From positions 1-55,206 of the forward strand of contig JAKSYS010000407.1 in NCBI GenBank assembly GCA_022925895.1: 55,206 bases of DNA, read 5' to 3'. Below are positions 26,401 through 52,470 of this stretch, piece by piece. The stretch's first letter is position 1; the number at the start of each line of letters is the position of its first letter. The DNA comes from Fragilaria crotonensis (taxonomy: Eukaryota; Bacillariophyta; Fragilariophyceae; Fragilariales; Fragilariaceae). The notes below the pieces were generated by a model. It worked only from the letters and a program-made list of their open reading frames with translations. It ran no database searches and was not told the DNA's origin. A program made the translations under genes and the position numbers.

Positions 26401-27331
26401 GAGTTGAGTATCTGAAACAGTGCATTGATAGCATTCGCAAATCAGATTTCAACAAGAAACGAATACCAATCGTGATTTCGCAAGATGGCAACGTAAAGGA
26501 AGTTACCGACTATATTGAATCCCTCGCGGATGAATTTTTGATCCACCGTATCGTGCATCCCCACTCGTGTTATGATCACCCCGACGACTTTCCAGCCGAT
26601 TCGGCTGGTCGTCTTAACAAAGATTATGCTGGCGATTCCTATAAGAATCCACGAACTGGGAGCATCACGTGCTGCAAGCATCACTTCACATGGCTAATGA
26701 AAACAGTCCACTCCAATCTAACCCTTGCTGGTGGTGCAGGGGCCTCAGATCGTTTTTTCTTTCTTGAAGAAGACTACGTTGTCGCTGCCAACGTGTACGA
26801 AACTATAGTGAGTGGCGTCGGCCTCTTTGAACAAGTGAAAGCGCCCGAGGGACAAAGCTCCGACGATTACGTGTTTGGTCTCTTGTTGGATCCCGCGAAT
26901 GGCAACTCCCGACGTCCTTTAAGGAAAGATGGTTTCTACGCAACACTGTTTTTGACCGGACCCATGGTTTTGAGCAAGTCGGCCATTGGGAAAGTCATCA
27001 AATACGCCAGGGAATACTGCGAATTTGACGACTACAATTGGGATTGGAGCATCGTCCACCTCATGTCAAAATTTTCTGATTTCCTCGCATCTGTCTAGTT
27101 CCGACCCAGCCTCAAGTGAAGCACATTGGTGTCAATGGTGGAATGCACAAAATTGATCCCCTGAAACGCGAAGAAATAAAGCTCGTAGCACTGCCAACTG
27201 ACTTTCATCCCAAGGAATTTCTATCCACGCAAGTGGAATATCGTGGCGATCGGAAGGGATTTGGGGGTTGGGGACATCCAGCTGATCATGCGCATTGCCT
27301 AAACATACTTGGTAGTCCTACCAGTGGTTGA
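23423..27331 (+). CDS. Golgi alpha-mannosidase II fused to N-acetylglucosaminyltransferase II
   Basis: A type II Golgi protein: Arg/Lys-rich cytosolic tail, membrane anchor at about residues 59-80, stem, GH38 mannosidase, then a GT16 (GnT-II) domain. GH38 marks: PHSHCDPGW, nucleophile Asp in [64 protein letters not shown]. The mannosidase ends about 40 residues after this, without the usual last beta-domain, and runs through a Pro-rich linker with no stop into [18 protein letters not shown]16 marks: [35 protein letters not shown] and a plant-like [12 protein letters not shown] end. These enzymes act one after the other in making complex N-glycans. One intron fits: 24434-24546. Frame shifts, each one base short, lie near 23853, 23984, 25055, 25430 and 27088, so the copy is either mis-assembled or decaying. 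Confidence 0.8.
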
Positions 27332-34884: not shown

Positions 34885-36690
34885 ATGCGAAGGCTTCTGT
34901 CTCAGCTCCTCCTCCTGCTGCTGCTCTCGCTAATACAGCTGCCCGGATCGCATGCCCTAGTTCGTGGTCATCGTCATGAGAGAACCGGTGCTGGAAGAAG
35001 TACGAGACGATTCCTTCAGATGAACAATAACGGCAACAACGATCCCAACGATCCCAACGATCCCAACGATCCAGATAACAACAACGACGTGCCAGGAGGA
35101 GACACTGCCGAGCCAAGTCGCAAACCACCTCCTGCTCCGGTGACCGTGGCCCCAGTGACTTCCCCCTCGGCTTCCCCCAGCCTCAAAGCCGCAATTGCAA
35201 CGACAAGCGCACCAGTCGCAGAAGGAAATGGCAAGAAATCTCCGACAAATGCCCCAGTTCCTTCGCCAGATTCTGCACCCCCAGTGGTTGTCAATCTAGT
35301 GCCCTTTGTCGTCTCTGCTGAATCCACCGCATCTCAAGGGGATGTAACAGCTTCTCTGGATCTATTCTTGACTGAAGAACTCAAGAGCGACTTTGATTCC
35401 TTGATTTCAGTTGATCTTGTTCTGCAAACACGCACACAAGTATCAGGACGACGAGCGCTTTTAGACGAACTTACCTATACAGGAACCGCATCCTTTGATT
35501 CCGACGTGTCGGACCAGGCCGTCCGTGACGCTCAAATTGCCGTTCTTCAAGATTCCGCGGCGGTGCAAGAGGCCGTGCCGAGTGTCACATCGATTCAGAT
35601 TGCTGCGGATGACAATACTGCGACCAGTGCACCAGCACCCTCCTCCGGAACATCCATGGGTCTCACCATTGGCGTGAGCATTGTTGCGGCTGTGGCTGTG
35701 ATTGTTGCTGCCTATTTTGCGTATCGTTACTATTCCACTCCGCCACCACCGCCGCCGCCGCCGCTTGCGAGTAAGGATGCTTCCAAACGAGCACCGAGGA
35801 GCTCGTCTGTCCCGAAATCACCGTACGCGTCGGACGATGCGGGAAGTCAATCAGCGTCTGGATATTATACCGGCGATGGCCACAGCGTAGAAATTGATGA
35901 CTACTCTCTGGATGGATTTTCTGCGCAGGGATCGGAGGCGGGTCTGGATAAGACCGAATTGTATCTTTTGCAGAGATACAAGGCCAAGAAAGAGCGAGAC
36001 AATCAACAATCCTTAATGGCAAACCCGAATCAACCACCATCCGACTATTATTTCAATAATAACAATCATGATGATGATGGCGACCAATCCGACGCGGGGT
36101 TCAGTTACGAACAGGTAGGAAGGAAGGGAGCGGAATCTGATGATGATTTGTATACTACTACATCTTCTGCAATTGAAGTCAGCTTGGATGGAAGTGCGAC
36201 CTTCATGACTGGTTACTTTGGAGCGTTGGGCAGGGGAAACCGCGATGGCGCAAATTCAACCGAGGCAGCGACGAAGAAGACGACAACTCCAACAACTAGA
36301 ACACCGGCGGCAGCAGCACCAGCAATAAAAACAACCACAACTCGGGTCAAACGCGAGGTGAACGAAATTCCATTCGATGAATCGTCCGTGGATCGTCCCT
36401 TTGACGAAACGCCTCCAGTCAAGAAGGCTTTGCCCGCTCCGGCATCAATACGAGCTGGAGAACAAGCCAGAGTTATTGCCAATCAAGTTCAATATCAACG
36501 AGATAGTGGCAGCATTGATTCCGACGAGGACTTTCCTGTTGGTCGCTCAAGATCAGGCAACAGTCGCAAATCAGCCGATTCTGACAAGGAAGATCTGTCG
36601 TCATTTCTCCGAGATCGACGCCAGGCCAAACGAGCAGCTCGGAAAAGCCGAGAGTTACGCAAGCAGCCGCCTGTATCGATGGAGGTGTAG
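34885..36690 (+). CDS. RxL/TM membrane protein family, member 1 (601 aa)
   Basis: Type I single-pass protein with no break. Signal peptide about 1-24 (Leu-rich), RxL site R42-F-L44, then an Asn-Asp-Pro repeat (NDPNDPNDPND) and a Pro/Ser/Thr/Ala-rich linker. A shared luminal domain follows at about residues 133-243 (LVPFVVSAEST, ELKSDFDSLISVDL, YTGTASFDSDVSD, RDAQIAVLQDSAAV). The membrane segment is about 258-280 and ends AYRYY, with a poly-Pro stretch after it. Tail motifs: EIDDYSLDGFS, SEAGLDKTELYLLQR, FSYEQVGRKGAESDDDLYTT, VDRPFDE, and a C-terminus SMEV. Three paralogues lie within 18 kb. The order of parts resembles diatom silica-deposition-vesicle membrane proteins (silicanin, SAP types), but sequence identity to them is not claimed. 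Convergent with member 2. Confidence 0.8.
   Translation: MRRLLSQLLLLLLLSLIQLPGSHALVRGHRHERTGAGRSTRRFLQMNNNGNNDPNDPNDPNDPDNNNDVPGGDTAEPSRKPPPAPVTVAPVTSPSASPSLKAAIATTSAPVAEGNGKKSPTNAPVPSPDSAPPVVVNLVPFVVSAESTASQGDVTASLDLFLTEELKSDFDSLISVDLVLQTRTQVSGRRALLDELTYTGTASFDSDVSDQAVRDAQIAVLQDSAAVQEAVPSVTSIQIAADDNTATSAPAPSSGTSMGLTIGVSIVAAVAVIVAAYFAYRYYSTPPPPPPPPLASKDASKRAPRSSSVPKSPYASDDAGSQSASGYYTGDGHSVEIDDYSLDGFSAQGSEAGLDKTELYLLQRYKAKKERDNQQSLMANPNQPPSDYYFNNNNHDDDGDQSDAGFSYEQVGRKGAESDDDLYTTTSSAIEVSLDGSATFMTGYFGALGRGNRDGANSTEAATKKTTTPTTRTPAAAAPAIKTTTTRVKREVNEIPFDESSVDRPFDETPPVKKALPAPASIRAGEQARVIANQVQYQRDSGSIDSDEDFPVGRSRSGNSRKSADSDKEDLSSFLRDRRQAKRAARKSRELRKQPPVSMEV
35036..35085 (+). repeat. 9-bp coding minisatellite (Asn-Asp-Pro)
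   Basis: The unit AACGATCCC, read as Asn-Asp-Pro, repeats about four times behind the RxL site of member 1. A different repeat sits at the same place in member 4 (51023-51145). Confidence 0.7.
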
Positions 36691-37078
36691 ATTACAAACT
36701 GCAGGTAACTCACAGCATAAATTAAAGCCACTTGTTTGTCACGAGATCAGACTACTACCGTAGAAAATTTTAAACATTGTACAACCAACTCATAAAGCGA
36801 TATATGAAATCAATGTTAAGAATCAAAAGTGAGCGTGTAACGAATTGTGTCCCAATGATCGTATCTACGTGCCACAACGGTGCCATCGACGTGAAGTGCG
36901 CCGAAAGTACGACACATTCTTAGACGATGTCATACCTGCATGACGAAAATGAACTATCTCCCGCACGCGAATGACGCCGTCAAAGGATTTCTAACTTCAC
37001 AATCAAGTCCCAACACTTGAGAGCTGCCCCGTCGACCGAAAGAATTGGAATTATGTACATGAATCAGCAACACTGCAC
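36691..37078. other. convergent spacer between members 1 and 2
   Basis: About 390 bases, probably two 3' untranslated regions. No gene or repeat recognised. Confidence 0.45.
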
Positions 37079-38383
37079 TCAACGGGCACCAGCGGATGCC
37101 GCCATCCTGGCCTTGTGTAGCTTCCATCGCCTCAGCGGCAAGTGCTTCTCAGACTCCTTATGCTCGGAAGGTTGCTCTGAACCGGCTACCGACATTTCGT
37201 TGTCAGTAAGGTACAAATCCTCGTCGTCGGATTCCATGAATTTCTGCCATTCGAAATCATAAGAGAATTCGCCATCGAATTCATACAAGCAAAGCGGGTC
37301 CTGGGGCGCCAACATCGCCAGCTGGTGCTTTTTCTCCTTCTCTTTTAGTCGCCTCGCAAGATATAGCTGAGTGGGATCTAGGCCGGCCTCCGAGTCATTC
37401 GTCGACGCAACGGAGTTGTCGTCGGCCGGTGTGGGCCTTGTCGCTGCCTGATGGGAATTATCAAAACCAGATTCCGAATTGAGGATGGACACACCACCGA
37501 GTGAAAGGTCATCATTCTCCATATTCATGCCATAGCTGATAACGGATCGGCTATAATCATCAGGTTGCTGACTTTCGTCTAGAAAAACTGATTCGGGAAT
37601 ATCTCTGGGTGAGTTGGCACTCGTGGCTTCGTCGCTGCTGCCACCCTTGGTAGGTTGTGTCGTGTAGTATTTGCATCCAAGGTAGATGGAAAGACCAAGA
37701 ACGACTGCCCCTGACACAATCACGCCAATAATTGGCCCCAACAAGGAAGGTGCATCGGATGTAGGCAGTTGCTGAGCTGGAGAAGCCACTGGCGCGGCAG
37801 GCTGAGCTGGAGAAGCCCCTGGCGCGGCAGTGGTGGTTGTTCGGGAACCCATTGTGATGGAAATCACATTTGGGGACGAAACGTTGAAATTGCCTAGGTC
37901 CACAAGAACGCGTGTTTGTTCGTCGTCAACGTCAGCGACGGGTACCACTACGGCAAATGTCGCTCGCCCAGAATAATGAAGTTCATCCGTAAGGGCTGGT
38001 CCCGTGTTCGCGCTGATGAAGTTGAGCTGAACAACAACATGCAATAACGACTCAAATTCCTTTTTGAGTTTATTCGCCAAGAGAGCGTTCAAGTAGCTCG
38101 TGACACCCGTAGCATAGGTGCTGTTGGTCATGGTTACAACAAAGTCGAGAAGATCAACTTCGTAGCCCAGATTCCAGTTGACGGGAGCGCTAGATGGCGC
38201 AATCGTGACCTGGGACGGAGCTGCTGAGGTTCCCACAATGCCCGGGCCGTCCATCAAGAATCTACCACGACTATTCCCTTTAACTTCAGCATGATTGCGT
38301 TGACCTCGATAGTACGCTTGCACAAGACAGGTTGACAACAACAGGTTCAAAAGCAATTTCGGAAGCAGCGGTAAAGGAATCAT
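37079..38383 (-). CDS. RxL/TM membrane protein family, member 2 (434 aa)
   Basis: Intact. Signal peptide about 1-23 (PLLPKLLLNLLLSTCLVQA), RxL site R41-F-L43, a short Pro/Ser linker and a luminal domain (VDLLDFVVTMTNST, NKLKKEFESLLHVVVQL, YSGRATFAVVVPVADVD). Two tandem Pro/Ala-rich units follow (SPAQPAAPVA), then a membrane segment about 214-237 ending GCKYY. The tail keeps ENDDLSLGGVS, NDSEAGLDPTQLYLARRLKEKE, FSYDFEWQKFMESDDEDLYLTDNE, but has no RPFDE and no SxEV end. It is the shortest member and has no Asn/Asp repeat after the RxL site. Function unknown; a secretory or wall membrane location is predicted from the parts. Confidence 0.75.
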   Translation of the reverse strand: MIPLPLLPKLLLNLLLSTCLVQAYYRGQRNHAEVKGNSRGRFLMDGPGIVGTSAAPSQVTIAPSSAPVNWNLGYEVDLLDFVVTMTNSTYATGVTSYLNALLANKLKKEFESLLHVVVQLNFISANTGPALTDELHYSGRATFAVVVPVADVDDEQTRVLVDLGNFNVSSPNVISITMGSRTTTTAAPGASPAQPAAPVASPAQQLPTSDAPSLLGPIIGVIVSGAVVLGLSIYLGCKYYTTQPTKGGSSDEATSANSPRDIPESVFLDESQQPDDYSRSVISYGMNMENDDLSLGGVSILNSESGFDNSHQAATRPTPADDNSVASTNDSEAGLDPTQLYLARRLKEKEKKHQLAMLAPQDPLCLYEFDGEFSYDFEWQKFMESDDEDLYLTDNEMSVAGSEQPSEHKESEKHLPLRRWKLHKARMAASAGAR

Positions 38384-38742
38384 GGTGCTTTTTCTTGGAA
38401 AACCGCAGAAAGTGATGAGCTTGCATTCATACCTAGGTAATTTCCTGCGTTCTCATTCTTCTTTTATTTATTGGACTCTCCTGTACTCCGAGTACCGGGT
38501 AGGCAACTTGATTCATGTGATGCTCTGTCTGCGTCTATGTATTTCAATTTTTCTCATATCTGACTTGACGTGAATTGCGTTCATTGGTATCCGTTGATAC
38601 ATGTAAATATTCAGTCACTGATAAAGTATATAAAGTGTCCATGTAGACATGTGTTTAATATTTCGTGGGATTGTCTCAAATATTAAGTACCGTTCCTTTC
38701 AACCCGGTAATCCGAGTGGAAATACATCTGGACTCAGTGTAG
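38384..38742. other. spacer upstream of member 2
   Basis: Expected promoter region of the minus-strand gene. Contains CTCCGAGTACCGGGTA near 38486. Nothing else recognised. Confidence 0.4.
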
Positions 38743-39668
38743 TACAAGCATAAACATAGTACCTGGACTAGTAAAATTATTCGTTGTGTCGGGACACTTC
38801 ATACACAACTTCTAACGGCACCAAATTGTAGATCTCACAAAAGGCTTTCTTTTCAGCTACATCAAAGCCGTGATAACATATGTATTGATGGAGTTATGAG
38901 TGGTCTAATTTTATTTTTCGAGATTTTTTTAAACATAGTACCTGGACTTTCAGTCACTAGTGTGGCAAATTGAGTCCCTTTTGACAATGTCAAGTTGGAA
39001 CAAGTTTTTTTTCACGTTACAAATATATCACAAGGGCCTATTCTACAATTCTGCCATCTTGAAATTTATGTATTCAGCAATAAATACACTCGGATTGGCA
39101 TTGAGATGGACAGCAGTAAAATTTCGAAGTTCGTAATGAAACTCTTGCTTTGTATGCGATTAAATTAGTAGCATGCAATTTTTGTATGAAACATATGGAA
39201 AGTGCCGTAGGATTAAAAAATTGCGACGTTGACGCACTTCAATGTTCAAAATTGACTTTGACCATGTTGATTTTGCAGTGGCCGTCAGAAATGCAAAGTA
39301 AGTTATGTGACTGCAAATTTGACCGGACATTAGAATACCGGCATACTAACAAGTAACAACAGTGTCAAAGAAGCACTACTGTCGTTCTTTGCATCTGTTG
39401 ACATGCTACAAAAATGTGCAATTAAATTACGAAGCAAAACTTTACATTCGCCAAAAAAATCCAAAATTTTAACTCGCCGCATCTTTTGAACTGTCCCACC
39501 TCACCACAAACAAGCTACAGTAACCCCATATGTTTGAGGGCATAGGACAATTCTCTAGTTACTGAAATGCACAATCTTCGTGCATGAATGTGGTGAAATG
39601 AGTGGTTTAAAAATCCGTCCAGCTACTCTCGTAATTTTGGTCGTCCAGATACTATGTTTATGCTTGTA
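38743..39668. mobile_element. MITE-like element, about 0.92 kb, 26-bp terminal inverted repeats
   Basis: The left end 38743-38768 begins TACAAGCATAAACATAGTA; the right end 39643-39668 is its reverse complement at 25 of 26 positions. With TA counted as the target duplication, the element is 38745-39666. An internal partial copy of the end (AAACATAGTACCTGGAC) lies at 38931-38947. The inside is AT-rich with no coding capacity (the frame 39150-39356 looks random). Its right TA (39667-39668) is also the left TA of transposon copy D, so the two elements abut. Confidence 0.75.
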
Positions 39669-39680
39669 TGGCAGGTTTCA
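39667..39680 (+). repeat. left terminal inverted repeat of copy D with TA
   Basis: TA at 39667-39668 and TGGCAGGTTTCA at 39669-39680, identical to the copy C end. Confidence 0.8.
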
Positions 39681-39761
39681 ATCGCAAGAGACTTGGAGTA
39701 GCACCCGGCACAAAGTGTACATGCAGCCAGAAGAATTTTACGTCATCAAATGAAAACTCTC

Positions 39762-39795
39762 TCGTGTTGGAAGCAAGCATTCCACGATGAGATTG
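39762..39795 (+). promoter_or_regulatory. conserved palindromic block in transposon 5' leader (copy D)
   Basis: CGTGTTGGAAGCAAGCATTC and the following CCACGATGAGATT match the blocks of copies B and C; the TGGAA/TTCCA arms are kept. Confidence 0.5.
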
Positions 39796-39913
39796 CATGT
39801 TATCGTTCGCAACCATTGGACTCTCTTTAAGCTACCCAGCCCCCACAGTTCACTTATAACTACCTTCAAGTATTGAACTGAGTGGGTTGGGTAGCTTGTA
39901 ACGATATCTGACA

Positions 39914-42900
39914 ATGGTAACTACACCAAAGTAATTGAATAAAGGCTACGATGCGCTGCTTCAAAATGACCCAACGTATGGACCCTGATTGATGAATTGT
40001 TGGCTGCCAGCTGAGACTTGGGTTGAAGCACTGCAGAAGACTGGCCATATTGATGCTGCTCTGGCCATTGACACCCACAAATTTAAGGCAGCTTTTACGA
40101 AATCAGGGTCCTTTGGATTCTTGATGGCAAGGTTTGATGGATCTAACCATATTGCTGGTGCCTTTCACGTGAGGTATCAGCATCAACAATAATGCTATTT
40201 CACTGAAGAAAAAAGGCAGGTATCCTCTCCAATTCCTCTGATTACAGCATGGAAGGACGAAGAGTACTTGAATCGGCCACAAATGTGTTTTCAATTTCAT
40301 CGACGAGCAGCAAAGCAAGACCGACTGCAATCGCAATTCTTACTCACGACAAGACTGAATCCAACAATGTTGATTGCAACACCAGTGACCCACCATCACC
40401 AAAGAAAAGCCCCAGGATTGAAACTAATGAAGAGCCTGAATCAATAGCTCAGCAGATGTAGTGGTCTGATAGCCGTGAGGCCCGCAAAGAAGTCTTCAAG
40501 CTGACATCAAGCAGGACTGCCAGCAGAATTAGAAGAGGTGCTGCTTCTGGTGTTGGCAATGGCAACAGTAGTAGTGTTGTTCTGCTGGATGATGAAACTG
40601 CAAAGGAGGCACTTGAGCAAAGAATCACAATGCTGCAATTGAGGAATGTACTACTGTAATTCTCGGTTTAGTAGTACCCCCCAAATGTACATCAAAACTG
40701 TCCGAAGGGTACAAGTCACCGAGGAAAAAAACAATGCGCATAACAGTGAAAAACTTGAAAACAAAGATTTAAACTTATCACTTGATCATTGAAGTTATAC
40801 GTGTAAAAATAGGTTTCGGCACGAAGAATTCAAATGACCTGACGTTTCAGCGAAATGCCAGAATTTGCTCTGCAAAAGGATCTAAAAAGAGCTCACTTTT
40901 TGGAGTTGAGTGGGTCAAAAATGTACATCAATTTTCGGCCAAGGGTACAGGAATCCGTGGGGTACAAAATTCCGAGAAATACGGTAGTCATGGGGAGGAG
41001 GGACATTGACAACTACTGCAGCAAGAAGGTTGACATTTTTGAGATTCGACAGCAATCGACATTTTTATGTTGTGCATACAAGATGGCTCTGACCAATATG
41101 AACAAAGTCACATGGCATGACTGTTGCAAGAGAGCATGCCAGGTTTTGAATAGCCTTGGCCTTAAACAGGCTGCCTTGTTCTTCAAGACCGTCGCCAACT
41201 GGAACAAAGTCTTCAGAAAGTTTTAGTGCTTTCCACATCCGAACCCATGCACCCAGTGTGTAAGCAACCTTTGCCAAAAATGCTTGAATTCTACCTGATG
41301 CAAAGTACCAGATAAATTCCTACAGTATCAAGGACTCCTTAACAACACTTACCCTAGAGAGTGCGCTTGACTTCATTTCTACAACTAGTACAGTTCCAAG
41401 GCTGACATCGACAGGGAACAATGAGCATGTTGGCATCCCGCAAGCAACAGATTTGAGTGAAAACACCGACAACAAAGCAAACAAAGCAATTAATTCATTT
41501 TTGAATGCTCATGGATAGGAGTCCATGAGCTTGACTGAAACTTGGAAGTGGATGTGTCTCCTTGGATTTTGTTAGGATACTCGTAAGAAGAGCTTCTACG
41601 TTGACGGGCGGACACAAACGTCACAATGTTGTAGCATCTAGATCTGCTTTTTGCAGATGCTACCTCACTGAATACGAACCATATTGCAGACAATGGTTAC
41701 TCGTATCAGTTGTTGAAGCAAAGGCTATTATTGGTATTAATATTGAGTTTGGATTCCGATATCATGGTGACATGGAGACTGACACCAAAATGGTGGAGTT
41801 TTACGTTGATTACTGGCGTAGAATCACAACGCCAGGCAACAAGGATTGCCGACATGCTGAGCAATGCCTCGAACGCAAGGAAGCAACAACCTTCATTTTG
41901 TATCTTTGCAAACGAGGCCCCTCTCATGATCGTTGGGGGACAAGATGAGAGTGTGTTCGCTCAGTATCTTCTCGGGTCTAAGCTGCGGGTGGGACCAAAA
42001 GGCCAGCGTCCCTTGTTGCCCAAGTCTGAAGGCAACGGCTGTATGCTGTCTGCCTTTGTGTCTTGTGAGTTTGGTTTTGGGCCAGAGCTGTCAAAGGCAG
42101 AGTTAGACAAAGTCAATTTTGAAAGGCAAGGAGCAAACAAACCTTACGTTGACAAACACGCAGCAATCAAAATTTTGAAATCCACTCAAAAATCACTACC
42201 AACTGAGTCACCATTAGTTCAATACCTCTACATTGGAGCAAACAACAAAGGCTTTTGGAACAGCTTCCATATGAGCTTGCAATTTGAAGACGTTGTGGAT
42301 TGCTTACAGGTTCTGTATCCAGACTTTGATTTTGTGTTCTTATTTGATCACAGTCAAGGCCATGGCAAAAAGCGGGATGGCGCACTCAGTGCAATGCACA
42401 CGTTTGAATGTACGGAGGAGCACAAGCAATCATGAGGAACTCATTCATCACAACAACAGAAGGGTTTCTTGGTCCTCACTCTCCAAAGCTAGAATGTGCC
42501 AACACTCAATACTTGCTGGTGTTCAAACCGGAGGACACTGGCCCATGGTATCTCTCCAATGGGCAGAGAGTTGCACAACGCAAAGACCGAGCAACAGGAC
42601 GGCGAAGGCGTGTCGAAATTTCCAAAAAGCTGCTCACAATAGCTCTGCTGGACGCTGGAGTTGAACTTCCACGGCATCAGAATTTAACAAGGAAAGAACT
42701 CCAAACCTTTGCCAATAGAAATGGCATTAATGTTTTTAAAGACAAGCTACAAATCAAACCAAGATGGAGGGACAGCAAAAAGGCTTGTTACAAGTTCTCT
42801 CGGAAAGGGGTTTCTATCAGAGGCAAGCAATGTTAGAGAAGTACACACTTGACGGACACGAAGATGCAATAACCGGCGCCATCAACTTACAGTTTTCACT

Positions 42901-43425
42901 ACGCCATCTAATGTCAGAATCCAGTGACTATAAAGATGTAGAAACAGCACTGCAGTATCTACTAGTGAGTCAGCTTGGCGTAAGAGTTCAGCTGACAACC
43001 AAATTCCATGCCGAACTTGCCAACAAAGGAGTTGAGTATAGTTGCGCACATGCAAAATCACACCACCGTTGAGTTCCGGTGTGAAGGAAGCGAGGACAAG
43101 AGAATTCCAAGGAACTTGTGGGCAAAGAATGTACATGTCCTGTTGAGGCATTGTACAAGCTTAGAATTGAAAAGTTTGCAGAAAGGGCGAGGGCATACAT
43201 TGGCACTTACCATCACTTGGATCAGCAGCAGCAGATTGATACTGATGTCACCGCAGCAAATTCTGATGCTGCCGCTCCAAAGAAACAAGAACTCCTCCCC
43301 TACAGTCTCATTGAGAGAAAACGGAAAGCCTTCAAAGGAGGCACAGATGTGCCCTTGATTTCAACAATGGCTTTGTGAATTTGCAGTTCATTAAAGTGGT
43401 GGATGAAGACGACAATCGTGGATGA
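39914..43425 (+). pseudogene. DDE transposase of copy D, decayed
   Basis: ATG at 39914 aligns with the starts of copies B and C. Fragments in several frames: 39989-40192 (NCWLPAETWVEALQKTGHID), 40249-40461, 40990-41226 (RRDIDNYCSKK, FEIRQQSTFLCCAY), 41562-41800 (YVDG, then RHNVVASR), 41710-42435 (ESVFAQYLLGSKLRVGPKGQ, FLFDHSQGHGKKRDGA), 42408-42836 and 42764-43072 (FHAELANKGVEYSCAHAK), with the end at 43425. There are several internal stops and frame changes. In the last catalytic block the usual Trp is replaced by Cys (VEYSCAH). Inactive. Confidence 0.8.
40651..40987. mobile_element. short MITE-like insertion inside copy D
   Basis: Between RNV and VMGRRDIDN of the transposase, 337 bases without a counterpart in copies B and C are inserted. 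Ends: CTACTGTAATTCTCGG at 40651-40666 and CCGAGAAATACGGTAG at 40972-40987, inverted with 14 of 16 matches; GTACCCC follows close inside both. The reading sense resumes at once after it, and a GTA/TA at both borders fits a TA-type target duplication. Confidence 0.65.
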
Positions 43426-43813
43426 AAAATTACTAAACTCTTCTTACATGTTTATCAGATGTCTACTTGTAGGCAGCTGCAATTCATGTTGCTGGCCTCT
43501 CGGGCGGGCGGATGTTGAAGTGGCTGGTTTGACTATTGTGTGGCTAATACCACACGTTAGTCAGTCTGAGTGAGCCTGGGCTGGAAGACACCCACTCGGG
43601 TTTGTGAAGTACTGTCGTATCGGTACTTGTTGTAATGTCGGTTGGTTGATGATCATAGCACCCGTGCGGACAGTAGTAGGATGGGGCAGAGGAGCAGGTG
43701 CAACGTCTGTCACATATGGAAAATAGTTGGACATCATTTGTTGTCGGAACCTTGCGATGTTGCATGGGATGTTGCGAGTCTAACGAGGCGCAACCACCGT
43801 TGTTTTTGGCTTA

Positions 43814-45170
43814 TCACGAAGAGTCTGTCGTCCAGTGGCACATTGAAGTAGCTCTGAAGGATGGGGAGAACGTGTCTTTGAGATCATACATTGTGGTGAT
43901 CTTGTGATGTAGTTGGGCGTGAAGGATGGCGGCACTTGCTTCAGTGTTTGCATGGAGCTTCATTTCTACTTTTCCTAATGGAGAGGGAGTAGTCTTGGAG
44001 AGCTCGGATGACCACTGCCAGATGATTGATTGTTGGGATGGATTGCCTTGCCTCTTGTCGTTCATGTGGAGGGCCGTCGGAAAACAGTGTTCCCCAGGAG
44101 AAGCTAATGAGACCTCTAAATAGATGCAACCAACCAATGTCAGATTGGGATTGGACAGCGCGATCAATAGCCAGCTGATAGCCACTGAGACACGACGGGA
44201 GAGTTGGTAGCTCCATCGGATGGAGGGTCCATTGTGTGACTGCACAAAAATGGAATTGCCACCAACGCTGTCGCCAAGTGCCTTCTTCAGAACAACTGTG
44301 GCATCACATCGAGCCGTCATCGCCTGAGGCGAGCGGCAGCTTTGGAGGTGCTCAAAATCTTCTGAAGAGGCACAGTACGGGCACCCACGGAGCGTATATT
44401 GACGAGCGCTTTCGTGTTTTCCACTTTGAACTCCTAAGTTCAACCAGTTGTGAACGAGCTTAGAGCGTGTCGGTGCGTTATCCATGCGTGTACGATGGCC
44501 ACATGACGAGAAAGACTCCCATGCAATGGCCGACATGGTACTGTCTTCCCAACGATATTTTTGTTGAAGGAAAAGTTGATGCCTGCGGGAGGTTATTTCA
44601 TCTCGAAGGTATGGGATGTAGCGCGAAGATATGTTTTGCTTTCCAAGGACAACTTCCACTGGTAGATGGAGCGGACATGGGGAACAAGATTGAGTGCTTT
44701 CCTTGTCGTTGTTTCGACCTTGACGTTGAAGGTGAGTTGTGGCCATCCCATCACATAAGGTACGCAGCTGCACCGCAAATGGAAGGCGGTCAAAAGCTAT
44801 TGTGGTATCCTCGGCATGGCTTTGTACGTGATATAGGAGGCAACGGTGTATGATGTCCGGAGCAGCCCTTTTGTACTTAGAATATGGGCGTTGTCGGCAA
44901 ACCTCCTCGTGGGGATTTGATCGCGAATGGAGGAGACTATCTTTACAGCGCTGGCGCTCTTCGCGTAGAATTTGAATTTGCACCGAATGGACCACGAGTG
45001 ATAATTGCTGAACTCTTGGAGGTATAGAGTCACGGACGCAATGGCAGTTACTGCACTCCGAAGGGAGCTCTGGCATTTGTGCCAGCCATCAACCGGTCCA
45101 GTATTTACGACCAGCTGCTCTTTTCCAGGGGTGCAAATAATCCATGAGAAGGATCCTCAATGGTTTTGCC
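43814..45170 (-). pseudogene. retroelement fragment: RNase H-like end plus C-terminal Cys/His region
   Basis: On the minus strand, about 45170-44800 reads (in one frame) as an RNase H-like domain of a reverse-transcriptase polyprotein (GSFSWIICTPGKEQLV, SLRSAVTAIASVTLYLQEF, FYAKSASAV). Then, in the 43814-45076 frame, come QSHAEDTT, DRLPFAVQLRTLCDGMATTHL, KYRWEDSTMSAIAWESF, RSKLVHNWLNLGVQSGKH and a Cys/His cluster CPYCASSEDFEHLQSC. This order (RNase H, W-rich helix, HNWL, CPxC...H...C) is common at the end of diatom and algal retroelement proteins. No reverse transcriptase domain is left, and frames shift near 44850. It is nested in transposon copy D. Confidence 0.65.
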
Positions 45171-45438
45171 TTCCTCCACTTGTACCAATGTACAGTGTGC
45201 ACTCAAGTTGGAGGTACTGTAGTAGAGTCTGCTCAGCATCGCAAGCTGACAAGGAGATGGTTGAGAGCAAACTAAGTTCCGCCTCCGGAAGGCGTGGATG
45301 AAATATAGTAGTGGTGCTTTTTATGAAGATCGGGGAGTGCGTTTTAGATCACAGAACAAGAATCATAAGAGAATTTTACTCTGGAATATTGTATTCATCG
45401 TAAAATAATAGGGAAGTGAAAGCAAGGACGGTCACGCA

Positions 45439-45452
45439 TGAAGCCTGTCATA
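45439..45452 (-). repeat. right terminal inverted repeat of copy D with TA
   Basis: TGAAGCCTGTCA at 45439-45450 followed by TA; 10 of 12 positions agree with the inverted left end. Support comes from the copy C-like 3' leader just inside it. Confidence 0.65.
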
Positions 45453-45578
45453 CAAGTACCTGATGCAACTACAGTAGTATGGTGCTTGTATTTGTACTTG
45501 TCCTTGTACTTGCGCTTGGAGCTTGATAATTGTTTTTGGAGTTATATAACGCATCTTTGGAGTAAGGCTACAAGGACA

Positions 45579-45803
45579 GCATAGCTTAGGAGTGCTTTTT
45601 GCAGTGTGGTGTGAATTTTGGAGTTTTGGGTTAATCTCAACAAGAAACAAGGGCAGCATAGCTTAGGAGTGCTTTTTGCAGTGTGGTGTGAATTTTGGAG
45701 TTATGGGTTAATCTCAACAAGAAACAAGGGCAGCATAGCTTAGGAGTGCTTTTTGCAGTGTGGTGTGAATTTTGGAGTTTTGGGTTAATCTCAACAAGAA
45801 ACA
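45579..45803. repeat. 77-bp tandem repeat, three copies
   Basis: Units start GCATAGCTTAGGAGTGC at 45579, 45656 and 45733, spacing exactly 77. They are nearly identical; the second has GAGTTATGGG where the others have GAGTTTTGGG. The last unit ends in CAAGAAACATGTG. Not coding in a consistent frame. Confidence 0.9.
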
Positions 45804-47903
45804 TGTGAAAGTCATTGCTTAGTAATAGCCTCAAGTGGTTTTTGCGTTTTCGCGTTTTCGCTTCTTTTGAAGACCTCGCACCCTTTGTGGGGCTCTTATG
45901 AGGGACTGAGGGCCACATTCGTTCGTGACAACCTCAGCCTGCATGCATTGGAGTGCAATTTCTCCATGTTTGAGCCTGTCCATTAAATAATTTGGATCTA
46001 AGCAATTAGTAGCTCAACAGTGCTCAAGAGGTTTCCAGGGCCAGATTTGTAGCTCTCTGTGGCTCATCCTAACAACAAGGCCTTGCATAACAGGGTGCGC
46101 TATAATGGGACAGTGGCTAGACAAACCGGTTGGATCCATTCTAGCTAGTAGCAAGTAGTAGTGGGAGCGAGTAATGGCTGCCACCTTACCAATATGTCAA
46201 GAAGTTGCTTCATCATCAGGAAGTTTGATAGTCAACTGCTCCTCCAACTCGTTTAAGATCAATCAAAAAAGAATCCGCCAAACAACTTGCAGAGCTTTTC
46301 TGTTCAGCAAATCAATTTTGCAAGGAGACGAAGCCATAGAAGAATCCTCTACCGCTGTACTGGTGGTGATTTACCCGGTTTTCTTACCAGCAGAGCTAAC
46401 AAGTTCTTAGCAGTACAACAGGGAAAGGGCTACAACAAAAGTCAAGCAAAAAGTATTGTGAGCTAATCATAAAATTACCAAAATGAGCCATTAATGAAAC
46501 CCAAGACCAAATTGAAAGATCAATGGTACCAATGACCAAGTTGATTGGTCATCAGCCAGCTCTCCCAAGACCAAGCTGATTGGTCATTAGCATTCACAAG
46601 ACCAACTCCATTAGTCTTTGTCTTCACAAACCATAATTGATCCAGGATCCTTGGACATTGCTATACATGGGTTATTCACCAAGGGTAATGGGTCATAGGT
46701 CAAAGGACATTCATTTATTGGCCATATCCAAGGGTCATTTGTCAATTGACATTCATTCATAGTTCATAACATTCATTCATGTTTTCTCATGATACCTCAC
46801 AGAACAAATGCTTGCATTGGCATAGAAATACAACAGTTGTCATCACATGTATTGCATCCCAAACCCAACTGAATGAGTGTGAGCACCAATAAGCACGGCA
46901 GAATGACCACCAGGAAGATCCAGCAGATAAATCCTTTGCAAGAAAGCAAGTGAGCAGCACTTTGATCCATATTTCTGTTCGCTAAATCGCATTGGTATTG
47001 CCTTGAGAACCTTCTGTTCAAGTTCATGCGGTTTATGATCGTTGAAAACAAACTGAGTTGTTGCCTGTCTGTGAAAGCATCTTGGAACATAAAGCTGTGG
47101 ATATTATGACTACAATGATATCCAAGTTATTGAACACTGTAGTAATGTACAAGGACTGAACTGAAATCGTAGGTTTGCTGCTCATGTAGCATAGATTATC
47201 AAGAATCAGTGTGATAAATCAGCAATGTTTGAATTTGGTGAACCTCTTGGAAGTCTTGTAACAAGAAAATCTCAAACCTCAACCTAGCAAGAACAGTTTG
47301 AATAGGTAGCAGGGTAGTGATGTTATTGCTGCGCTTTGAGTGCTGGCACTCCAACTTACACACGGCGCTTGGATTGTAAGGTAGAACCGATGAGCGTATG
47401 ATACAGCATCCAGACAACAAGGACTGTGTAAGATATTTCAGGACTCTCCACCGCGGTAGATTGCAAGCCGTCTTGGAACAATCTACTACCAACCTCTATT
47501 GATTGAAACTCATGCAATATTGTACCGTGTCTAGTACCATCAACCTTAATCTTTGCGTCCATTAGTCTTTGTCCTTGTTAAGTTCCCACATTCGAATGAA
47601 CATTCATAGGACATACAGTCTTCTTCAGATCACCCATGGCGGTTGGCGCTACTTTGTCGGTCAACACCAGGAAACACGATGGTTGAATCTCAGCGTTTTG
47701 CCTCATCAGTCTTGTCCCTCTACACCTTAGGACATGCGAGTATCTAACACGGGAGAGATTAACCAACCAATAACCGCCAAGAAAATCGGAAACACCCTAG
47801 TCAGTCCTCCTCTCCACAGGAATTTATCCAGCTGGTCTGAGGACTTACAAGTGCACTTACAAAGTCATTGCACATTAAGATATTTTAAATCTGGTAGGAC
47901 GGC
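45804..47903. other. gene-poor spacer with small palindromes
   Basis: No supported gene. 46174-46410 is a 78-codon ATG frame with no domain. 46533-46551 (TGACCAA, 5-base loop, TTGGTCA) and 46569-46585 are two neighbouring hairpin-capable GACCAA/TTGGTC units, followed to about 46780 by many GGTCAT and ATTCATT words. 47578-47766 (minus) has a protein-like scrap (LVLTDKVAPTAMGDLKKTV) that could be an old retroelement remnant; not proven. Confidence 0.4.
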
Positions 47904-49393
47904 TTAATGCTGACCATTGCGTCGCTCTCGTCTGAATGGTCTCGGACCGTTCCTGCCGACATCCACCGACTCTGTGGTTTTGCTTGATCTATTTCGAGCC
48001 CTATCCAGGTTACCATCCTTATCGGGCGGAAGCTCAACTGATACTTCGTCGAATGGACGACTGAGTTGCATGCGAGAGAACGGCGAGGGAGCCAATTCAT
48101 CGTCTTCTAGGTACTCATCCTCGTCTTCATCCTTCTTCCCGCCCAGCATATTGACGTAGCCATGGATGCTGGTTCTACTATCAGCTCTTGCGGCAGGGCC
48201 TTCGTTGTCCGTAGTGTATACGTCATCGTCATCCGATTCAATCCTTTGTTCCCGACGTTGCTGTAACTAAACTCTGCCTCAGAATCGTCGAAATGCTTTG
48301 CCATTCCGGACTTCAACAACCCAGGCTTCTCCTGCAAGACAGTTCGGGCATTCCTCGGATTCACAACTGGCATCACAACAGGCATTCGGGAATGATCATC
48401 GTCTGTATCATAGTCTGTGGAGAGAGCGACGTCTACAGAGTATTCATCTTCATGCATATATCGCCTTTGATGCGATTGGACGACATCATGATCTGCATCG
48501 TAATCGGCAGTGGAGGCATGGCCGAACGACGAATCGTCTTCGCTCATTTCTTGTCTTTTGTCACGTTGGTTGAAGTTATGACCTGCCTCCGATGCTGCTG
48601 TGGTAGAGAAATCATCTATGGAATAGTCATCAATCTCGGTATTGCGACAAAAGCTTAGACCGGAATGGCTCAAGCCATCTTGTGGAGACACTTCTTTTCG
48701 TGCCGAATCACCGTCGGTGCCTTCTTCCACCGAGGCTTCGGCGTGCTTTGATTTGTAGCGACGGTACCCGAAAAATAGTGCAGCAACAATCCCTATGGCC
48801 GATACAATCACGACGACGATCAATCCAGCGGGAGAAAATTGGGTCTCGGGATTTAACATGGAAATGGACACAACTTTGGGAGCGACTTCCTTTATTGTTG
48901 CTGAATCTTGGAGAACTTGTGTTTGCGCTTCGCGAACCTTTTCAGCAGAAACAAATCCGGCAAAGGTCGCTGTACCAGAAAAGGCGAGCACAGTCAACGC
49001 TGCTAGGCCAGTCACGGTTCCCGTCTGCGTGAGATCAACTGAGCGCAGAGAACTGAACGTTTTCGTGAGTTCAGAAGTCAAATGTGTATCCAGTTGCTTA
49101 GCCACGCTTCGCGAGTGCGTGCTGTCCTCCATGGACACTGTGAACTCGAGGAGTTCAATCACAAACGGAGAAGGATTTGCTACCGTGGTAGGGGCAACCG
49201 AAGGCGCTATGAATGATGTGGGAGGGAAGGAAGGAGACACAAAGTTGGAGTCACTGTTCTTGTCGTTCACCTGCTGCAGGAATCGACTGCGAATATTTCT
49301 GTTTCCCCTCCATTTTACACTTCGTTCCGCTTTGCAGTAGGCTAGGACCACGTTGACCAGCAGAAGTGCCAAAAGCGATAATGACATCTTCAT
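47904..49393 (-). CDS. RxL/TM membrane protein family, member 3, one apparent frameshift
   Basis: The start at 49393 (MKMSLSLLALLLVNVVLAYC) gives a clean signal peptide; the frame is open further upstream to 49480 without signal-like sequence. RxL site R37-F-L39 is followed by Q. A short Ser/Pro linker leads to the luminal domain (VIELLEFTVSMEDST, ELTKTFSSLRSVDL, FSGTATFAGFVS, REAQTQVLQDSATI) and a membrane segment about 187-207 ending GYRRY. Tail: EIDDYSIDDFS, SEAG, then DEYSVD repeats, FSYSNVGNKG, ESDDDDVYTTDNE, LSRPFDE. Near 48248 the sense moves to the 47904-48149 frame; one G is missing from AAAGGGATTG relative to the expected reading. The C-terminus is basic, without SxEV. Divergent to member 4. 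Confidence 0.75.
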
Positions 49394-50889
49394 TTCAGTA
49401 TTCTTCACAAAGGATGCCCACACGCGAGAATGAGCGGAAACGGCCGATGGTTGTGGCCCAAACAGGGCGAGAACAAGCACCTGCGACGACAGTCGTGATG
49501 TCGTGATACCTGGTACTTTTACCGGTAGTATCTTACATAGAAGTCGTTCGTGACGAAAACGTGTGAATCATTTTTTTGAATTTACTAATTAGGTCCCTAC
49601 CGTTGAAATGTTGTTTTCCGACACATTTTTGAGTTCAACTCCGTATGAAAGTGATCGTAACTCGCCGCACAGGACAGCTTCTTGCACAGCTCTGGAGCCA
49701 ATAAAGATACTACCGGTACTTGCTCAGTACTGTAGATGTTTCGGTGAAGTACGACTGACCCTCCTCAAGAATTGGAAATGGTCCAACCAAGACTCGATCT
49801 GGCGGGACTTCCCATCGTTTGTGAGCAAGCTTCATCTCGCAATTCAGGTTTCTACCTTCTCTTGAAAGGGATTTGGTGCGATGTAATGATGATTGACAGA
49901 TTCCGACCAGGGAAGATACTAGTAGGGGGACACAACCAGTGAGCATCCTTCCGCTTGTTTTAGTCAGGAATCGTTGGTAATTGAGACCTTAGCCTTCACT
50001 ATGCTATGCATAAAGGTACGCGCGACCCCAGTCTAAGACCTATGATTCTGTCAAGGGAACAATGCACCAATTCCCTGTGCTTCCAAAAGGATAGCGATGG
50101 TCCACAAGACGTTGTCATCCTACTCGCCCAGCAAGAGATACGAAGTGTCTCAAGTTGAAGCGCGGTGTGACAGAAGGCAAAGTCTGGTCGAAATATCGGA
50201 ATCCTCCGATCGCCAATCTATGCCAACACAGCATCCGATTCCAATCGCAGTCTATACTTGTATTGCCACCGATGCATTGCGGACACTCTCTATAACACGA
50301 AAAAGCTGCTCAAACAGAGCATCTTGGCAACTATTCGATATCCAACTGCAGTTTCCCTTGGAACCGGGACACACTTCTTTCTTGTGCATTTTGGTCGCGG
50401 GCTCGAATTATACGAATCATCTGTCTATATATCACGAATTAATGATGATGATCATATGCACTTATGCGTACACTCGTCGGATACACATGATCCAGAACTA
50501 CTCCATTTTTAAACTGTGTTTACCTGAAGAGTATTCCTGTACGTAGTAGTTTCGAGTTCAGTGGACTACTAGCTAGTGGCTAGTGGCGAGGGTGCGTATC
50601 CCATTCTAAGTAGGAATGATCCACATGAAATTACTCGATCGGGCTCGCGCGTTGTTTGAGTCCAAGACTGATCTCATGGTGCACCATTTTCCTACACGAA
50701 AGTTCATTACCAGGTTACATATTTTAATTAACACGGAAATCAAGAACTCCAAGATATTCGCGTCAGGCAAGTTCGGTCCATTGCGATCGCACGATTCACT
50801 ACTTGTACCACCTTCACGGATGGATTCCCTATCCACAAGGTGTGACAGCGTCAAAGACAACCTCGAGGCGAAAAAGAAACAGCACCACG
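49394..50889. other. divergent intergenic region between members 3 and 4
   Basis: About 1.5 kb holding both promoters. 49505-49535 and 49910-49930 carry GGTACT and ACTAGTAGGGGG words like those at 8828. Open frames at 50097-50546 and 50258-50512 have no domains. No core promoter element could be assigned. Confidence 0.4.
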
Positions 50890-52470
50890 ATGACGACAAG
50901 ACTGGCGTTGCAACTCATGTTAGTATTGCTCGCAAACATTGCGCATGCAAACTACCGGGTTGATGCTCATGTGGCAGGTCTTGGAAGACCACGCGGAAGA
51001 TTACTCCAACCGACTTCGAGGAATAATGATGATGTGAATGGGAACACCAACGATGACATGAACGGAAACACCAACGATGACAGGAACGGAAACAACAACG
51101 ATGACATAAACAGGAACAGCAACGATGACATGAACGGGAACGACCTAAGCCAGCCTCCCTCTGCAGCTCCCCTGGCAAGTCAGCACACCTCTCCAGTTAA
51201 GGCCACTCTGCAATCCCAGTCGCCAGCTCCAAATTCTACTGCAATGGTCGTAGTGGTCGATCTCCTAGGTTTTGTTGTCCTTGTGGACAATAGCACTTTT
51301 CAAGATTTGGCGAGTGCATTCGAGGAACTATTGACTGATGGATTGAAGAAAGATTTTGATTCTTTGATCTCTGTCGACCTTCGACTGGAGACTCAGATGA
51401 TATCTGGGAAAACACGTCAATCTCAATTGGTCTTCTCAGGGACTGCTACCTTCGACTCCGCAGTGTCAGACCAACGCATACGCGATGCTCAAACGCTCGT
51501 TCTCCAAGATTCCGAAGCAGTACGACAGGTTGCGCCCGATGTGATTACGGTCACAATGTCCAACCCTGTTCCCGAAAAGTCGTCTACTAGCACTGCATCC
51601 CAAAACAACAATTCTGCTTTGATTGCTATTTTGGTGGTGGGAGTTGTCGTGGCCTTAGGGGTCGCCACATTCTTTGGGTATCGTTACTTCTGCCTCAGTC
51701 CAGGACTGTCTCGTTCCCCGCTGCGTCGCAGTAAGGGTCATGGCACGCGACACTTGCCCATCGTGACGATGCCGAGACCTAAATATTTCCAAGAACCTGT
51801 TCTTCAACAAGAAATGGCGCCACCGGAGCAAGTCTTGCGCAGCAACAGTATCATCACCAATGATGAGTATTCTCTAGATGGCATCTCTACAACTGCCGCC
51901 GATTCGGAAGCTGGTGGCGGTGTCGATACGACAGAAGCGTATCTCGCCAAACGACTCCAAGAAAAGGAACGCCAACTTGCGGCGTTATCGTCGGGGCAGA
52001 AAAAGGATAGTGAGAGCTTCGATGATACGGACGCAGGGTTTACCTACGATAATATTGGCCGGAAAAGCATAGTTGAGTCGGAAGATGATGATGATGATGA
52101 TGTGTACACTGCAGGTGCGGAACGCTCTGCGGATTTAGAGGCTGGCACTGAGCGAAATGCTGCTTATGCTGCGGATCACGTTGACCAATTCGAGTCGGCA
52201 TTTGATGAATTTTCCTTGGATCGTCCATTTGACGAATCAACCCTTCCTGGCGACGATGAGCAAGTAAGCAATCACAATGAGAAGTTCGTGGACGAAGGGG
52301 ACAAGCACATTGGGGCAGGTAAGAGCTCCGCGAAGACGGCAAGAAACGCAGTAAGCTATGAAGGCGTATCACTCTTCCTCCAGGGACGGCGCAAGGCCAC
52401 TAGAGTGGCTCATGACGACCAAGAGCGACACCCTGGCGACGTGGCACCCGCGACGAGCGTGGAAGTATAG
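50890..52470 (+). CDS. RxL/TM membrane protein family, member 4
   Basis: Start ATG 50890 (MTTRLALQLMLVLLANIAHA) is chosen because it opens directly into the signal peptide; the 29 upstream in-frame codons from 50803 look like leader. RxL site R37-L-L39, followed by Q. Then an Asn/Asp/Gly repeat (NDDMNGNT-like units) and the luminal domain (VVDLLGFVVLVDNST, DGLKKDFDSLISVDL, FSGTATFDSAVSD, RDAQTLVLQDSEAV). The membrane segment is about 242-264 and ends GYRYF. Tail: NDEYSLDGIS, SEAGGGVDTTEAYLAKRLQEKE, FTYDNIGRKS, ESEDDDDDDVYT, LDRPFDE and C-terminus SVEV. Closest in plan to member 1. About 526 residues, no break. Confidence 0.8.
   Translation: MTTRLALQLMLVLLANIAHANYRVDAHVAGLGRPRGRLLQPTSRNNDDVNGNTNDDMNGNTNDDRNGNNNDDINRNSNDDMNGNDLSQPPSAAPLASQHTSPVKATLQSQSPAPNSTAMVVVVDLLGFVVLVDNSTFQDLASAFEELLTDGLKKDFDSLISVDLRLETQMISGKTRQSQLVFSGTATFDSAVSDQRIRDAQTLVLQDSEAVRQVAPDVITVTMSNPVPEKSSTSTASQNNNSALIAILVVGVVVALGVATFFGYRYFCLSPGLSRSPLRRSKGHGTRHLPIVTMPRPKYFQEPVLQQEMAPPEQVLRSNSIITNDEYSLDGISTTAADSEAGGGVDTTEAYLAKRLQEKERQLAALSSGQKKDSESFDDTDAGFTYDNIGRKSIVESEDDDDDDVYTAGAERSADLEAGTERNAAYAADHVDQFESAFDEFSLDRPFDESTLPGDDEQVSNHNEKFVDEGDKHIGAGKSSAKTARNAVSYEGVSLFLQGRRKATRVAHDDQERHPGDVAPATSVEV
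51023..51145 (+). repeat. 24-bp coding minisatellite (Asn/Asp/Gly)
   Basis: Five or so degenerate 24-base units around AACGATGACATGAACGGAAA encode NDDMNGNT-type repeats right behind the RxL site of member 4. Confidence 0.7.

What the first reader, a model, noticed from the sequence alone, without database searches (positions are those of the whole stretch)
34885..52470. Cluster of four paralogous RxL-site, single-pass membrane proteins
Seen: members at 34885, 38383(-), 49393(-) and 50890 share signal peptide, R-[FL]-L at residue 37-44, a low-complexity segment, one luminal domain (SLxSVxL, GTATF, RDAQxxVLQDS), one TM ending in an aromatic Y-x-[YF]-like motif, and a tail with DDYSLDGxS, SEAGxD and ESDDDDxYT. 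Known: diatom silaffins and silicanin-type proteins carry RxL processing sites, and silica-vesicle membrane proteins (silicanins, SAPs) have a luminal part, one TM and a short tail. Inference: this may be an undescribed family of cell-wall or silica-vesicle membrane proteins.
Basis: partly seen in the sequence, partly recalled or inferred. Interest (0 to 1): 0.9.

Follow-up and report, generated by a model that had tools for sequence, protein, structure and literature searches.

The report
Four diatom RxL single-pass membrane paralogues
A silica-walled diatom carries a cluster of four related, undescribed membrane proteins with a compact folded head facing the secretory space and a long, strongly conserved tail inside the cell; they could sit on the vesicle in which the glass wall is made, but that location is a guess that still needs an experiment.

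Summary
Four single-ORF paralogues (34885-36690+, 37079-38383-, 48107-49393-, 50890-52470+) share a hydrophobic leader, R-[FL]-L at residues 37-44, one luminal domain, one TM and a tail. Six protein searches of the 62-Mb genome find these four and nothing else below E 0.03. Corrections: the tail is 192-318 residues, not short, and holds the most conserved window. The 38383 copy lacks five quoted motifs. In the 49393 copy ESDDDDVYT lies in another frame. The genome resembles the Fragilaria crotonensis draft and has silicon transporters. RxL is kept in 10 of 10 intact N-termini. The luminal domain is modelled as a ferredoxin-like fold next to the membrane; a SEA domain is among the best, tied, solved matches. 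No cysteine lies between RxL and TM, unlike diatom silicanin/SiMat7-like proteins; the conserved SAP segment next to the TM is not evident. Best reading: silicanin/SAP-like (by analogy) silicalemma or cell-surface membrane proteins with a sorting or scaffold tail. Wall location is inferred, not shown; taxonomic range is unknown.

The parts
34885..36690 (+). paralogue A (P0001, 601 aa), single ORF
35008..35016 (+). RFL of paralogue A (residues 42-44)
35284..35601 (+). luminal ferredoxin-like domain of A (residues 134-239)
   Evidence: AlphaFold2 model; conservation; coordinates
35644..35730 (+). TM helix of A (residues 254-282)
35890..35994 (+). tail core of A: EIDDYSLDGFS..SEAGLDKTELYLLQRYKAKKE (residues 336-370), holds the most conserved 15-residue window of the protein
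36100..36159 (+). tail element of A: FSYEQVGRKG-AESDDDLYT, Yxx-hydrophobic plus acidic cluster
37079..38383 (-). paralogue B (P0002, 434 aa), tail to tail with A; most diverged motifs
38255..38263 (-). RFL of paralogue B (residues 41-43)
37853..38164 (-). luminal domain of B (about residues 74-177), by alignment
37667..37756 (-). TM helix of B (residues 210-239)
48107..49393 (-). paralogue C (P0003, 428 aa as read), head to head with D
47904..48239 (-). stretch in another frame with family motifs at the end of C: ESDDDDVYTTDNEG ... QLSRPFDE ... stop (111 residues)
49277..49285 (-). RFL of paralogue C (residues 37-39)
48863..49171 (-). luminal domain of C (about residues 75-177), by alignment
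48758..48844 (-). TM helix of C (residues 184-212)
50890..52470 (+). paralogue D (P0004, 526 aa)
50998..51006 (+). RLL of paralogue D (residues 37-39)
51028..51141 (+). 24-base tandem repeat (4.8 copies) coding the Asn/Asp-rich NDDMNGNT segment of D
51250..51558 (+). luminal ferredoxin-like domain of D (residues 121-223)
   Evidence: AlphaFold2 model; coordinates
51601..51690 (+). TM helix of D (residues 238-267)
52039..52110 (+). tail element of D: FTYDNIGRKS-IVESEDDDDDDVYT
49394..50889 (.). 1.5-kb space between the heads of C and D, possible shared promoter
   Evidence: ORF coordinates; inference

Best explanation
These are type I membrane proteins of the secretory pathway, probably of the silicalemma (the membrane of the silica deposition vesicle), in this diatom and its relatives. 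Shown by sequence or model: a hydrophobic leader; a conserved RxL site; a stretch that is acidic or Ser/Thr/Pro-rich; a cysteine-free ferredoxin-like domain of about 105 residues, a low-confidence linker and one TM helix; and a long tail with conserved elements (D[DE]YSLDGxS-SEAGxD-TExYLxxR; FSYxx[VI]GxKG-ES[DE]DDDxYT; RPFDE, the last in the A and D clades mainly) and, in the A and D clades, a C-terminal S[MV]E[VI]. Inferred: the propeptide is cut at RxL in transit. The low-complexity stretch and the domain then face the forming wall. The tail recruits cytosolic sorting or scaffold proteins; its Yxx-hydrophobic motif beside a CK2-type acidic cluster is the pair that furin uses. The protein would so couple the vesicle membrane to the cytosol, as proposed for SAPs.
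For: Silicifying host: PF03842 over cut-off at 18 of 19 places (of 14 control genomes one rings, below cut-off). RxL in 10 of 10 intact N-termini, a site that PMC5647440 says had so far been found only in biosilica-associated proteins (Discussion part 1 read). Same order of parts as SAPs and Sin1. Luminal fold and TM in two models of two paralogues. Tail core at least as conserved as the luminal domain. A, B and D each have well supported relatives from other sources. Tyr motif plus acidic CK2 cluster as sorting signals in furin: PMC3743005, passages.
Against: No expression, tagging or proteome data. Nine relatives found, of unstated taxon, whereas Sin1 homologues are reported from 70 diatom species. 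Tail much longer than in Sin1; no SAP-like conserved segment next to the TM; at most one KxxK per row in the lumen. RxL specificity was not established in this genome: 2 of 8 other signal-peptide-like ORFs also have it, too few to judge. The Yxx-hydrophobic motif is in 8 of 13 rows only. The fold is a common one; PheRS domains match it as well.
Confidence: 0.4

Rival explanations
1. Plasma-membrane, mucin-like adhesion or colony-linking proteins: the low-complexity stretch and SEA-like domain stand outside the cell, where they hold mucilage or neighbouring cells, and the tail signals or anchors inside.
Confidence: 0.31
2. Cargo or sorting receptors of the TGN, endosome or vacuole: the luminal domain binds cargo, the tail cycles the protein by adaptors.
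For: Conserved tail with Yxx-hydrophobic motif (8 of 13 rows) and acidic cluster with a CK2-type serine (10 of 13 in the main frame, plus the second frame of C); both are sorting signals of furin (PMC3743005, passages).
Against: The three B-clade rows lack the hydrophobic residue (YDFE), P0013 has Phe for Tyr and P0017 lacks the motif; a cluster of four paralogues is unusual for a housekeeping receptor (inference).
Confidence: 0.17
3. Members of a larger diatom superfamily of RxL/SEA-like single-pass proteins with a general role, of which these four are a local branch.
For: From memory only: similar 'SGTATF'-type membrane-near domains and D-x-SL tails seem to occur in other diatom proteins. 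P0017, with 26-34% identity to the window copies over the aligned stretches, shows that diverged members exist.
Against: Six protein searches of this genome found no more distant copy, and three searches of 5.8 billion proteins found only nine further rows. Those searches are lossy: each scored only 8000 candidates, and one search did not list the query's own paralogue D.
Confidence: 0.12

Closest known systems
Silicanins / SiMat7-like proteins (Sin1)
   Same: Type I, signal peptide, RxL, luminal part, one TM; diatom multigene family
   Different: Sin1 has a 20-residue tail without known motifs and an NQ domain with 18 conserved cysteines, the SiMat7-like family eight conserved cysteines; here no cysteine between RxL and TM in 11 rows and tails of 192-318 residues
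Silicalemma associated proteins (SAP1-3)
   Same: Signal peptide, RxL, one TM, conserved cytosolic segment, paralogues in one genome
   Different: SAPs have a serine-rich luminal block and a 28-residue conserved segment directly after the TM, on the shorter side; here no such serine block by eye, and the first 45 or so residues after the TM are poorly conserved
Membrane mucins and other SEA-domain proteins
   Same: Low-complexity ectodomain, ferredoxin-like domain next to the membrane, TM, cytosolic tail (architecture recalled)
   Different: No sequence match to SEA, no GSVVV-type site between strands 2 and 3; RxL site after the leader instead
Furin-type TGN-sorted membrane proteins (tail only)
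   Same: Tyr-based motif near an acidic cluster with CK2-type serine
   Different: Luminal part unrelated; motif not in all rows

Membership tests
Silicanin / SiMat7-like | signal peptide, RxL, one C-terminal TM | tested here: met
   models 84 and 104; leader by crude hydropathy only, each of two rules missing one of the four
Silicanin / SiMat7-like | conserved luminal cysteines (18 in the NQ domain of Sin1 homologues; eight in SiMat7-like proteins) | tested here: not met
   No cysteine between RxL and TM in the 11 rows counted (P0009 and P0011 not in that count); definition from passages. Against a strict use of this feature: silicanin homologues of Parmales lack the NQ-rich domain
Silicanin / SiMat7-like | short cytosolic tail (20 residues in Sin1) | tested here: not met
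   tails of 192-318 residues in five rows
SAP | 28-residue conserved cytosolic segment just after the TM | tested here: inconclusive
   the stretch after the TM (about residues 291-335 of P0001) is poorly conserved within this family; SAP sequences themselves were not at hand to compare
SAP | serine-rich luminal block (e.g. 18 of 23 residues) | tested here: not met
   no such block in the four translations, by eye
SEA domain | ferredoxin-like beta-alpha-beta-beta-alpha-beta fold | tested here: met
   best solved matches include Gpr126, tied with PheRS domains; the fold is shared by many unrelated families
SEA domain | sequence match to the family profile (Pfam PF01390) | tested here: inconclusive
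   no match; the control genomes rang nowhere, so that search proves no absence
SEA domain | cleavage site GSVVV/GSIVA between strands 2 and 3 (not in all SEA domains) | tested here: not met
   strand 2-3 loops printed for 13 rows, none holds GS[VIL]; P0001 and P0017 have GS[VIL] elsewhere, in the tail
Biosilica-associated RxL proteins | RxL after the signal peptide | tested here: met
   10 of 10 intact N-termini
Biosilica-associated RxL proteins | found in or on silica | not testable with these tools
   needs tagging or proteomics

The most novel reading that the evidence does not exclude
A silicalemma receptor family whose membrane-near SEA-like domain ties luminal wall matrix to the membrane and can be pulled or cut apart, while its long conserved tail brings cytosolic scaffold and sorting factors to the silica vesicle: a direct link from cytosol to silica pattern that is unrelated in sequence to silicanins and SAPs.
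Probability: 0.18. Interest if true: 0.78.

Novelty: new variant of a known kind. Interest (0 to 1): 0.47.

Why it matters
How cytosolic pattern information reaches silica across the vesicle membrane is an open question (stated in PMC5647440), and few membrane proteins are candidates (silicanins, SAPs). A family with a long tail that stays conserved while the rest diverges gives concrete motifs to mutate and to use as bait for partners, in a freshwater diatom outside the usual models.

Tried and rejected
Pfam, NCBIfam and PDB sequence searches gave only matches below cut-off or weak ones, rejected. Weak places elsewhere in the genome: eight (C463, C329, C1, C86, C234, C162, C98, C213; E 0.039 to 3). 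The three looked at are not family members (C463 a 526-aa ORF that looks FHA-like by eye; C329 a 381-aa repetitive ORF; C1 a 144-aa ORF); the other five were not read. RxL specificity in this genome: only 200 kb of sampled contigs plus the window were used; 11 of 123 ORFs of 150 aa or more were signal-peptide-like by a crude rule that misses copy B; RxL in 5 of 11 (three are family members) against 16 of 112 others (R[FLY]L 5 of 11 against 4 of 112): too small to decide. SEA autoproteolysis: no site in the loop, rejected. A dibasic or RxL site in the strand 2-3 loop is in some rows only, not pursued. Plain Foldseek lists were never obtained; VIA-align 2 was used instead. The C-terminal S[MV]EV as a PDZ-type ligand is recalled, untested.
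Full report
Source. The window is contig C345, 1-55206, of a genome of 62,107,879 bases in 881 contigs; window GC is 46.5%. Size and contig number resemble the draft of Fragilaria crotonensis SAG 28.96 (61.85 Mb, 879 nuclear contigs, GC 47.4%; PMC9476933, part 1 of 2 of the text read). This is a likely identity, not a proven one. The genome is that of a silicifier: the silicon transporter family PF03842 matches at 19 places, 18 over the cut-off, with one open frame of 1456 codons holding three transporter units (of 14 control genomes one rings, below cut-off).

Observation. Four single ORFs: A 34885-36690+ (601 aa), B 37079-38383- (434), C 48107-49393- (428), D 50890-52470+ (526). A and B are tail to tail, C and D head to head, the pairs 9.7 kb apart with repeated elements between. 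With A (residues 1-538) as query the whole genome gives D at E 1.2e-40, C at 1.0e-20, B at 7.8e-12 and no other place at E 0.001. Five further protein queries, at E up to 10, find the same four; eight other places lie at E 0.039 or worse.

Motifs. B departs at five (SLLHVVV, GRATF, DDEQTRVLVDL, CKYY, DDLSLGG), keeps RFL, SEAGLD and ESDDEDLYL, and aligns with the others. In C the ESDDDDVYT stretch is not in the ORF; it lies in another frame at 48239-47904, with QLSRPFDE and a stop after 111 residues. This is a recent frameshift or an assembly error; reads would tell. No signal-peptide program was at hand; of two crude hydropathy rules each misses one of the four leaders (B, D), and the second also flags residues 113-138 of D, which the model shows as strand.

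Relatives. Three searches of 5.8 billion proteins gave P0009-P0017, nine rows. Each scored only the 8000 candidates sharing most words, and one search listed neither A itself nor D, so rows are probably missed. Their taxa are not stated. With the four window copies this makes 13 rows. The tree has clade A with P0009, P0010, P0011 (100/100), clade D with P0012, P0013, P0014 (96/99), clade B with P0015, P0016 (100/100), and C and P0017 on long branches whose joining is unsure; deeper forks have 81-89% support. The duplications giving A, B and D are thus older than the split of these sources. P0010 and P0016 each list 3852 bases as their longest contig, just enough for an A-B tail-to-tail pair; that they share one contig is inferred.

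RxL. R[FLY]L lies at residues 37-44 in 10 of the 10 rows with an intact N-terminus; P0009, P0011 and P0012 start downstream of it. Around it the sequence is poorly conserved. Shuffling residues 25-50 of five rows never gave the motif in all five in 20,000 trials. Retention points to a real processing site. Whether RxL marks silica proteins in this genome could not be decided. PMC5647440 states that RxL sites had so far been found only in biosilica-associated proteins (Discussion part 1 read).

Tail. By the cuts it is 318, 258, 216 and 192 residues in A, D, C (ORF frame) and B and 287 in P0017, longer than the luminal part counted there in each. The best conserved 15-residue window of the protein is in the tail (SLDGFSAQGSEAGLD, mean BLOSUM62 score 2.82, against 2.61 for the best luminal window; six rows). 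YS[LI] of the first element is in 10 of 13 rows (not in the B clade), Yxx-hydrophobic in the second in 8 of 13, an acidic cluster with serine in 10 of 13 plus the second frame of C, RPFDE in 7 of 13 plus the second frame of C, and a C-terminal S[MV]EV in 7 of 13, with SMEI in P0011. Furin uses a Tyr motif for TGN exit and an acidic CK2 cluster for retrieval (PMC3743005, passages). That these elements work alike here is inference.

Comparison. Not a silicanin or SiMat7-like protein as those are defined in diatoms: no cysteine between RxL and TM in the 11 rows counted against 18 or eight conserved ones (passages), and a long tail against 20 residues; but silicanin homologues of Parmales also lack the NQ-rich domain (passage), and no silicanin sequence was compared directly. 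By working analogy it resembles both.

Verdict. A real family in a silicifying diatom, not described in any paper that I saw listed by searches (one listed none); most of those listed I saw by title and abstract start only. Silica-vesicle location is the leading guess (0.4), cell-surface adhesion is close (0.31).

Noticed in passing
38742-39668: 927-base element with similar ends in inverted orientation and no open stretch over 78 codons; 15 near full-length and about 5 partial copies at 97-100% identity among the 40 of 451 candidates scored, so recently mobile and non-autonomous.
   Followed up: partly
43431-45291: 1.86-kb repeat with four further full-length copies at 91-93%; its - strand frame has a Cys/His pattern that looks like a retroelement end by eye.
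   Followed up: partly
24117-27098: Glycoside hydrolase 38 N-terminal domain in two ORFs, then one ORF with the GH38 C-terminal domain followed by N-acetylglucosaminyltransferase II (PF05060): possibly a Golgi mannosidase II / GnT-II fusion; stops between the ORFs may be introns or errors.
   Followed up: partly
G000:C97:29749-33762 and C771:21664-24330: Silicon transporter units fused in one frame: three in 1456 codons and two in 1008 codons.
   Followed up: no
45570-45803: Three tandem copies of a 77-base unit at 98%.
   Followed up: no
5518-6168: ORF with a ShK domain (PF01549, E 1.6e-7).
   Followed up: no
47904-48239: Second frame at the end of paralogue C that keeps family motifs: frameshift or assembly error.
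   Followed up: partly
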